DNA of 6,938 nucleotides from NCBI GenBank assembly GCA_046759145.1, contig JBHIBR010000097.1:1-6938 (forward strand), in the 5' to 3' direction. Under the pieces are notes generated by a model, which was not told where the DNA came from, searched no databases, and worked only from the letters and a program-made list of their open reading frames with translations. This document shows positions 1-1,321 of the stretch, piece by piece (the first letter of the stretch is position 1; every line of letters starts with the position of its first letter). The position numbers were made by a program, and so were the translations under genes. This stretch comes from JBHIBR01 sp046759145 [NCBI: Nitrospinota bacterium]. GTDB lineage: Bacteria; UBA8248.

Positions 1-238
1 TGCAGGCGGCCAGCTTGGGGTCGAGGTAGTGGATGAATCCGCAGGAGGGGCAGCAGAGCCGCTCCCTGGTGTCCCCCGGCGGGATCCGCCGCTCGAGGAG
101 CGCCCCGCAACCGGTGCGATGGCGCACCCTGCCCGGCAGGTAAGGATGGGCCAGGGGGGCGGGCTCCTCCGGGCGGACTACCAGGCCCGGTGGCCGGGGC
201 GCAGGCGGATTATCCGAGGTATTCCGCTCAGGGCTCAC
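1..238 (-). CDS. NUDIX hydrolase, N-terminal zinc-ribbon part (partial, continues past the left edge)
   Basis: The first 79 codons of a gene cut by the window edge. Residues 44 to 79 (CGALLERRIPPGDTRERLCC, then PSCGFIHYLDPKLAAC) match the zinc-ribbon leader seen before the catalytic domain in NADH pyrophosphatase or ADP-ribose pyrophosphatase-like NUDIX hydrolases, which cleave nucleoside diphosphate derivatives. The NUDIX box itself lies outside the window, so the family call rests on this leader. The second Cys pair (C63, C66) is intact. In the first pair only C44 remains: Arg41 sits where the partner Cys is expected. The chosen start is the GTG at 238, which overlaps the upstream stop (GTGA) and has GGAG 11 nt before it. 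It gives a Pro-rich lead of about 40 residues. A GTG at 127 would begin directly at the ribbon and is an alternative. Confidence 0.7.
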   Translation of the reverse strand, partial: MSPERNTSDNPPAPRPPGLVVRPEEPAPLAHPYLPGRVRHRTGCGALLERRIPPGDTRERLCCPSCGFIHYLDPKLAAC

Positions 239-873
239 AGGAAGAGCCGCTCCGCGCCCGGCAGGAGGAAGGGGTTGGTCTCCGCCTCCCGGCCGATGGT
301 GGTCTGGGGGCCGGGGTAGGCGACCGTCTCGGGCGGAAGGGCCAGGAGTTTTTCGCGGATGGAGCACAGGAGCTGGGTGGGGGAGCTCCCCGGGAGGTCC
401 GTCCGCCCCACCGCGCCTGCGAAGAGCGCATCCCCCACGAACGCGGCGCCCTCCCGGTAGAAGGTCACCCCGCCCTCCGAATGGCCGGGGGTGCAGAGGA
501 CCCGGAAGGTGAGCTCCCCGACGCTCACGGCGTCGCCCTCCTCAAGGAAGCCATCCACCTCAGGCGTCCAGGGGGCGGGGAGGCCAAAGCTCCTCGCCTT
601 CTCGGCCAGGGACCGGAGGTGGGGGAGGTCCCCCCGGTGCAAGTAGAAGGGGACCCCCAGCCTCTCCTTCGCCTCCTGGACTCCCTCCACGTGGTCGAGG
701 TGCCCATGGGTGTTGATGATCTTCGTGAGCCTAAGGCCGTGGCGGGAGGCGGCGGCCAGTATGCGGTCCACCTCCGCCCCCACGTCGATGAGGGCCCCTT
801 CGCGGGTCTTCTCGCAACCGACAACGTAGGCGTTCATCTGGAAGAGGCCCACCGTGACGCATTCGACGATCAT
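235..873 (-). CDS. MBL-fold hydrolase, glyoxalase II-like, lacking the last metal-ligand histidine
   Basis: Metallo-beta-lactamase fold protein of 212 residues, closest in look to the short YcbL/GloB2-like hydroxyacylglutathione hydrolase group; the actual substrate is unknown. The start MIVECVTVGLFQMNAYVVGC is typical of that group. The metal motif THGHLDH (55 to 61) supplies His56, His58, Asp60 and His61; TPGHSEGG supplies His131 and FVGDALF supplies Asp148. Relatives then carry YPGHGPxTTIG, whose His is the seventh ligand. Here residues 186 to 194 read YPGPQTTIG, so a His-Gly pair is missing while the flanking residues, including the later TNPFL, are kept. Activity may be lost or altered. 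It starts at an ATG with GGAGG just upstream (878 to 882), 13 nt after atpC, and its stop overlaps the next gene by 4 nt. It is therefore probably co-transcribed with the synthase genes, which does not prove a related role. Confidence 0.88.
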   Translation of the reverse strand: MIVECVTVGLFQMNAYVVGCEKTREGALIDVGAEVDRILAAASRHGLRLTKIINTHGHLDHVEGVQEAKERLGVPFYLHRGDLPHLRSLAEKARSFGLPAPWTPEVDGFLEEGDAVSVGELTFRVLCTPGHSEGGVTFYREGAAFVGDALFAGAVGRTDLPGSSPTQLLCSIREKLLALPPETVAYPGPQTTIGREAETNPFLLPGAERLFL

Positions 874-886
874 CGTCCCTCCGGGC

Positions 887-1321
887 TCATCCCTCCTCCT
901 CTCTCCCCTCGCCAGCCAGAGTGGCCACCCGGAGCCGGCTCATCGCCCGGCGCAGCGCAGCCGCCGCCCGGTCGAAATCCACCGACCCCTCCGTCTGGCG
1001 GGCAAGGTGGCGCTCCGCCCTCTTCCGCGCCTCGCGGGCGCGCCCCACATCGATCTCCTCCGCCCGCTCCGCCCGCTCGGCCAGCACCGTCACGTAGTTG
1101 GGACCCATCTCGGCGAAGCCGCCGACCACCGAGACGAAGTGGAGGCGGTCGCCCTTCCGATAGCTCAGGGCCCCGACGTCGAGCCGGCAGAGGAAGGGCG
1201 TGTGACCCGGGAGCACGCCGAACTCACCGCCCGCCCCCGGGGCGGTCACCTCGTCCACCTCCTCCCGGAATAGGAGTCGCTCGGGGGTGACCACCTCCAG
1301 GCGGATCTTCCCCTCTTCCAT
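887..1321 (-). CDS. atpC: F-type ATP synthase subunit epsilon
   Basis: Rotor subunit at the foot of gamma. In many bacteria its C-terminal helices brake ATP hydrolysis. It has 144 residues. The beta-sandwich domain covers about 1 to 88, with the conserved IRLEVVTPERLLF start, the GEFGVLPGHTPFL segment (about 32 to 44) and VVGGFAEMGPNYVTVLAE (about 65 to 82). An Arg/Ala/Glu-rich helical hairpin then fills about 88 to 135, so the two-helix regulatory domain is present. The ATG is 4 nt after the atpD stop, consistent with coupling. It is the last synthase gene of the operon. A 13-nt gap with a good ribosome binding site leads into the MBL gene. Confidence 0.95.
   Translation of the reverse strand: MEEGKIRLEVVTPERLLFREEVDEVTAPGAGGEFGVLPGHTPFLCRLDVGALSYRKGDRLHFVSVVGGFAEMGPNYVTVLAERAERAEEIDVGRAREARKRAERHLARQTEGSVDFDRAAAALRRAMSRLRVATLAGEGREEEG

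What the first reader, a model, noticed from the sequence alone, without database searches (positions are those of the whole stretch)
298..321. Glyoxalase II-like protein has lost the PGHGP metal-ligand histidine through an apparent 6-nt in-frame deletion
Seen: residues 186 to 194 read YPGPQTTIG; the other six expected ligands (H56, H58, D60, H61, H131, D148) are present. Known: relatives of the YcbL/GloB2 type have YPGHGPxTTIG or similar, and that His matches the seventh metal ligand of glyoxalase II. The coding DNA reads TAC CCC GGC CCC CAG. An ancestral TAC CCC GGC CAC GGC CCC CAG would lose exactly six bases by slippage between the two GGC copies. Inferred: a mono-metal or altered enzyme, an enzyme drifting toward loss of function, or an assembly error. 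The frame and the flanking motif are otherwise perfect.
Basis: partly seen in the sequence, partly recalled or inferred. Interest (0 to 1): 0.6.

Follow-up and report, generated by a model that had tools for sequence, protein, structure and literature searches.

The report
Glyoxalase-like enzyme missing metal ligand
A bacterial glyoxalase II-like enzyme has lost one of its seven metal-holding residues through a tiny in-frame deletion that none of the relatives compared shares, so it is probably a crippled or changing copy of an ordinary enzyme, although an assembly error cannot be excluded.

Summary
The 212-aa MBL-fold protein (235-873, minus) reads YPGPQTTIG where relatives read PGHGPxTTIG or similar; the other six ligands are present. 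The motif-5 His is present in 79 of 79 aligned close homologues, including 18 of 18 orthologues from the nearest clade, which also carry the downstream Nudix gene. "This subfamily never had the His" is therefore refuted for the sampled relatives. The gene otherwise looks maintained: open frame, SD-like sequence, GC3 like its neighbours, branch shorter than its sisters. Two further near-invariant positions differ (P31V, S154A), and the Nudix neighbour lacks a zinc-ribbon Cys that 17 of 18 orthologues have; an assembly error alone would not predict these. Best reading: a real, fairly recent 6-nt in-frame loss in a YcbL/GloB2-type gene under relaxed or changed selection, breaking metal site 2 and leaving site 1. 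Activity is probably low or absent: in the mono-iron relative AcPDO, the H171A variant (by my equivalence the same position) is inactive (passages of PMC6060420). A working mono-metal enzyme and an assembly error both remain possible.

The parts
235..873 (-). MBL-fold (YcbL/GloB2-like) protein gene, 212 aa
   Evidence: Pfam PF00753, 6.6e-26; AF2 mean pLDDT 96.8; YcbL 2xf4 TM 0.94
307..315 (-). Deletion junction: P187-G188-P189 where close homologues read P-G-H-G-P; motif-5 His absent
691..708 (-). Motif 2 (HGHLDH) ligands H56, H58, D60, H61 (retained)
481..483 (-). Motif 3 ligand H131 (retained)
430..432 (-). Motif 4 bridging ligand D148 (retained)
412..414 (-). A154 where 72 of 79 aligned homologues have Ser (BLEG-1 Ser-156, loop12)
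   Evidence: BLEG-1 mapping from the alignment and passages
781..783 (-). V31 where 77 of 79 aligned homologues have Pro (IDPG motif)
1..238 (-). Start of a Nudix protein gene (GTG overlapping the MBL stop; runs off the window); zinc ribbon reads HRTGC instead of CxxC
   Evidence: PF14803, 47 bits, match begins next to the second Cys

Best explanation
This is a YcbL/GloB2-type MBL-fold hydrolase gene that suffered a private in-frame 6-nt deletion (two codons, His plus Gly, of the motif-5 PGHGP loop). Shown: the residue is absent, all compared relatives that cover the site have it, and the rest of the reading frame and the predicted fold are intact. Inferred: metal site 1 (H56, H58, H131, bridging D148) can still bind, while site 2 keeps only D60, H61 and the shared D148 and so binds a second metal weakly or not at all. 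Hydrolysis of lactoyl-thioesters is then strongly reduced or lost, and the gene, together with its overlapping Nudix partner, is under relaxed or changed selection and at an early stage of decay or repurposing.
For: His present in 79 of 79 rows of A1 and in 108 of 108 homologues whose hit reaches residue 195, including 18 of 18 orthologues. The query groups with those 18 at 100/99 on the MBL tree and with G166/G303 at 97/94 on an atpA tree. A Nudix frame follows the MBL gene in 18 of 18 orthologue loci, with an NTGA stop/start overlap in 14 of 18 (my count). Predicted fold intact, mean pLDDT 96.8, closest to YcbL 2xf4. Two further departures at near-invariant columns: in the 50-row set the query has 4 (2 of them the deletion), each of the 49 others 0 or 1. 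The neighbour's ribbon Cys is lost while 17 of 18 orthologues have the CxxC. AcPDO H171A is inactive with a lowered melting point (passages of PMC6060420); in BLEG-1 the equivalent His-191 is a Zn2 ligand (passages of PMC8431146).
Against: One sequence only, and no genome or reads are held. No acceleration: the query's branch from the shared node is 0.67, whereas the 18 sister paths that I summed from the printed tree are all 1.15 or more, which argues against long relaxation. GC3 is 0.911 against 0.89-0.953 for six atp genes and an SD-like sequence is kept, so the gene looks maintained. In the wider 76-row set S154A no longer counts as a departure and the query's total falls to 3 (2 from the deletion), against a maximum of 1 (97% threshold) or 2 (95%) in the others; 1 of 79 A1 rows also has Ala at 154. 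One orthologue (L131) lacks the first half of its Nudix zinc ribbon, so that ribbon is less constrained than the MBL site.
Confidence: 0.52

Rival explanations
1. Assembly or consensus error: the organism's gene has the His and the two codons were lost in sequencing or assembly at a GC-rich, possibly repeated spot.
For: Unique among 108 homologues whose hit covers the site; the gene is otherwise intact with a short branch; the local sequence is GC-rich and a GGC/GGCC repeat is plausible.
Against: The loss is exactly in frame. Errors do not explain P31V and S154A or the neighbour's lost Cys. The atp frames of the same window are open and align to relatives over long stretches.
Confidence: 0.23
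2. Functional mono-metal enzyme: site 1 alone (Zn or Fe) carries the chemistry, ETHE1-like, possibly with a new substrate, and the loss was kept by selection.
For: Site 1 ligands are all retained. Human ETHE1 binds its single iron with His79, His135 and Asp154, and its motif-5 His195 is not a ligand (passages of PMC4383860). Short branch and expression signals kept. The change in the active-site loop (S154A) could be adaptive.
Against: In AcPDO, itself mono-iron, H171A is inactive and less stable. The single Zn seen in crystalline YcbL sits in site 2, the site broken here. No compared relative shares the state.
Confidence: 0.18
3. A subfamily that never had the His, or an older clade-wide loss.
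For: None found.
Against: All 18 genomes held for the phylum of the nearest clade have the His, as do 79 of 79 rows of A1. Closer relatives are not held, so a young clade-level loss stays possible.
Confidence: 0.05

Closest known systems
YcbL, type II glyoxalase of Salmonella enterica (PDB 2xf4)
   Same: Single-domain MBL fold without the C-terminal helical domain; Foldseek TM 0.94/0.95, 38% identity; HxHxDH, motif-3 His and motif-4 Asp.
   Different: YcbL keeps His-192, a ligand of its single crystallographic Zn in site 2; the window protein lacks it.
TTHA1623 of Thermus thermophilus (2zwr; di-iron form 2zzi)
   Same: Best sequence match among solved structures (1.6e-38), 46% identity in the fold alignment.
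   Different: Keeps the GHGP the window lacks (alignment); the title of 2zzi names a di-iron-bound form.
BLEG-1 of Bacillus lehensis (7ev5)
   Same: Same fold and motif order; glyoxalase II and beta-lactamase activities reported (start of abstracts).
   Different: Zn2 bound by Asp-58, His-59, His-191; the His-191 equivalent is deleted here and Ser-156 is Ala.
ETHE1 / persulfide dioxygenases
   Same: MBL fold; mono-metal binding by residues equivalent to three of those retained here.
   Different: Lower similarity (4chl_A 27% identity); human ETHE1 and AcPDO keep the motif-5 His, and its Ala variant is inactive in AcPDO.

Membership tests
YcbL/GloB2-type glyoxalase II | Single-domain MBL fold without the C-terminal helical domain | tested here: met
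   212 aa; AF2 model and Foldseek to 2xf4
YcbL/GloB2-type glyoxalase II | HxHxDH motif, motif-3 His, motif-4 bridging Asp | tested here: met
   H56, H58, D60, H61, H131, D148
YcbL/GloB2-type glyoxalase II | Motif-5 His (PGHGP) completing metal site 2 | tested here: not met
   Absent in the query; present in 79 of 79 rows of A1 and 108 of 108 covering homologues
YcbL/GloB2-type glyoxalase II | Descent: groups with PGHGP-bearing orthologues | tested here: met
   100/99 support with 18 orthologues
YcbL/GloB2-type glyoxalase II | Hydrolysis of S-D-lactoylglutathione | not testable with these tools
   Needs an assay
Canonical hydroxyacylglutathione hydrolase (TIGR03413) | Score above the curated cut-off | tested here: not met
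   86.1 bits against 200.8
ETHE1-type persulfide dioxygenase | Mono-iron ligands equivalent to His79, His135, Asp154 | tested here: met
   By equivalence of H56, H131, D148, through the glyoxalase II residues named in the paper
ETHE1-type persulfide dioxygenase | Motif-5 His (ETHE1 His195, AcPDO H171; equivalence of the two is my inference) | tested here: not met
   Deleted
ETHE1-type persulfide dioxygenase | Dioxygenase activity and GSH-binding residues | not tested
   No alignment of GSH-binding residues was made

The most novel reading that the evidence does not exclude
A naturally occurring YcbL-type enzyme stripped to metal site 1 by a single 6-nt deletion and still functional, as a mono-metal hydrolase or oxygenase, with a remodelled active site (P31V, S154A) and a co-drifting Nudix partner.
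Probability: 0.15. Interest if true: 0.5.

Novelty: new variant of a known kind. Interest (0 to 1): 0.27.

Why it matters
If real, it is a natural single-step loss of a metal ligand that every compared homologue covering the site has kept, in an otherwise intact gene. It could be used to test whether site 1 alone supports chemistry in YcbL-type enzymes, and how such enzymes begin to decay or change function. As one unreplicated sequence it is a modest finding.

Tried and rejected
Considered and rejected: a subfamily that never had the His (18 of 18 orthologues have it). General low quality of the window: the atp frames are open and align to relatives over long stretches. A replacement ligand: H85, C127, C170 and six acidic residues of the query occur in none of the 18 orthologues at those columns, but nothing places any of them at site 2; coordinates of the AF2 model were not among the files that I could read, so this was not tested further.

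Led nowhere: two viral contigs motif scans, shortened motif and intact control, both 0 matches, so uninformative. The plasmid search with atpD gave 98 records, all at 60-80% identity, of many genera. Paper searches 'metallo-beta-lactamase/pseudoenzyme/histidine/lost' (1 paper, on a metformin hydrolase) and 'glyoxalase II/deletion/metal-binding histidine' (0 papers) found no description of such a loss; that covers only the held PMC library and those terms. Four other paper searches were for background.

In one search the Nudix query was read out of frame; it was redone in frame. The second structure prediction and the other fold libraries were not used.

Full report
What is there. The window carries, on the minus strand, an ATP synthase gene cluster (b', b, delta, alpha, gamma, beta, epsilon), then a 212-aa MBL-fold protein (235-873) 13 nt after the epsilon gene, then the start of a Nudix protein whose GTG overlaps the MBL stop codon. 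Pfam was run only on epsilon and b'; the other subunit names rest on alignments among relatives and on my reading of the translations. The MBL protein matches Pfam PF00753 (6.6e-26). It scores 86.1 bits with TIGR03413 (glyoxalase II), below that model's cut-off of 200.8. Its four best solved relatives are TTHA1623, YcbL, BLEG-1 and the chain of 7l0b. The AlphaFold2 model (80-row alignment A1) has mean pLDDT 96.8 and lies closest to YcbL 2xf4, TM 0.94.

The observation. Residues 186-194 read YPGPQTTIG. In A1, 79 of 79 homologues have G-H in the gap of the query, and 79 of 79 have the six other ligands. In the wider set of 127 distinct proteins from 152 loci, 124 were scored H and three run off a contig end. 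The BLAST hit itself reaches residue 195 in 108, all with H; the other 16 rest on the extended frame, and one of these (L042) is not meaningful. Distant members have longer loops at this place.

Where the window belongs. No genome is held for it. Its atpA is 85% identical to that of G001, the genome of the record named Nitrospinota bacterium J063, over 395 residues up to a contig end, 79% to G060 over a part, and 76-78% to G166 and G303. An atpA tree of 12 rows nevertheless groups the window with G166 and G303 at 97/94, so its nearest kin is not fully settled. A tree of 50 MBL proteins places it beside all 18 genomes held of G166's phylum at 100/99. A Nudix frame follows the MBL gene in 18 of 18 of these loci, with an NTGA stop/start overlap in 14 of 18 by my count. 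I take them as orthologues; 18 of 18 have the His. No atp gene was matched in these 18 loci (flanks of about 1.5 kb, some shorter), so the position downstream of epsilon is particular to the window among those compared.

Is the gene decaying? Against decay: open frame, SD-like GGAGGG before ATG, GC3 0.911 against 0.89-0.953 in six atp genes, and a branch of 0.67 while the 18 sister paths, which I summed from the printed tree, are all 1.15 or more. For changed constraint: P31V and S154A, at columns at least 97% conserved (weighted) in the 50-row set. There the query has 4 departures including the two deleted residues; of the 49 others 43 have 0 and 6 have 1. In the 76-row set the query has 3 and the others at most 1 (97% threshold) or 2 (95%). 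In A1, position 31 is P in 77 of 79 and A in 2; position 154 is S in 72 of 79, and one row has A like the query. S154 corresponds to BLEG-1 Ser-156 of loop12, listed among docked S-lactoylglutathione contacts. The neighbouring Nudix ribbon has HRTGC where 17 of 18 orthologues have CxxC; the remaining one (L131) lacks that half. These are small numbers, and the excess is suggestive only.

Origin of the deletion. The loss of two codons is exactly in frame. A direct repeat GGCC-AC-GGCC, which would favour slippage, is present in 10 of 61 homologous motif DNAs that fitted a regex, and in 5 of 18 in the orthologue clade. The ancestral codons here are unknown, so slippage is plausible and not shown.

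Consequence. [quoted passage not shown] crystalline YcbL held a single Zn in site 2 (Asp-60, His-61, Asp-151, His-192) (passages of PMC8431146). The window protein keeps site 1 and loses the His-191/His-192 equivalent. Human ETHE1 is mono-iron with His79, His135 and Asp154; its His195 is present but not a ligand (passages of PMC4383860). That would allow a mono-metal site 1 here. However, AcPDO H171A, which I take as the same position, had no activity above detection and a reduced melting point, which the authors relate to its place in the hydrogen-bond network (passages of PMC6060420). I therefore expect low or no activity. Loss of metal ligands in other MBL-fold branches is already described (one domain of yeast Trz1, class-C flavodiiron proteins, passages of PMC7785958).

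Verdict. A real observation, probably a real private deletion (I put an assembly error at about a quarter), most likely giving an impaired or changing enzyme. It is a variant of a known family, of modest interest until reads or a second genome confirm it.

Noticed in passing
window 116-121 (-), Nudix codons 40-41: The overlapping Nudix protein reads V-R-H-R-T-G-C-G where 17 of 18 orthologues have a CxxC knuckle: the first zinc-ribbon Cys is replaced by Arg, with a His just before it.
   Followed up: partly
L131 (minus strand, downstream of the MBL gene): This orthologue lacks the first half of the Nudix zinc ribbon through an apparent in-frame deletion, so the ribbon may be dispensable in this clade.
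   Followed up: no
window 235-1321: The MBL-Nudix pair sits 13 nt after the ATP synthase epsilon gene here; no atp gene was matched within the held flanks of the 18 orthologous MBL loci.
   Followed up: partly
L105, L106, L131-L146, motif 3: All 18 orthologues have Asp before G-H of motif 3 where the window and the 31 other close homologues have Pro, and most carry about six extra residues after window residue 140.
   Followed up: no
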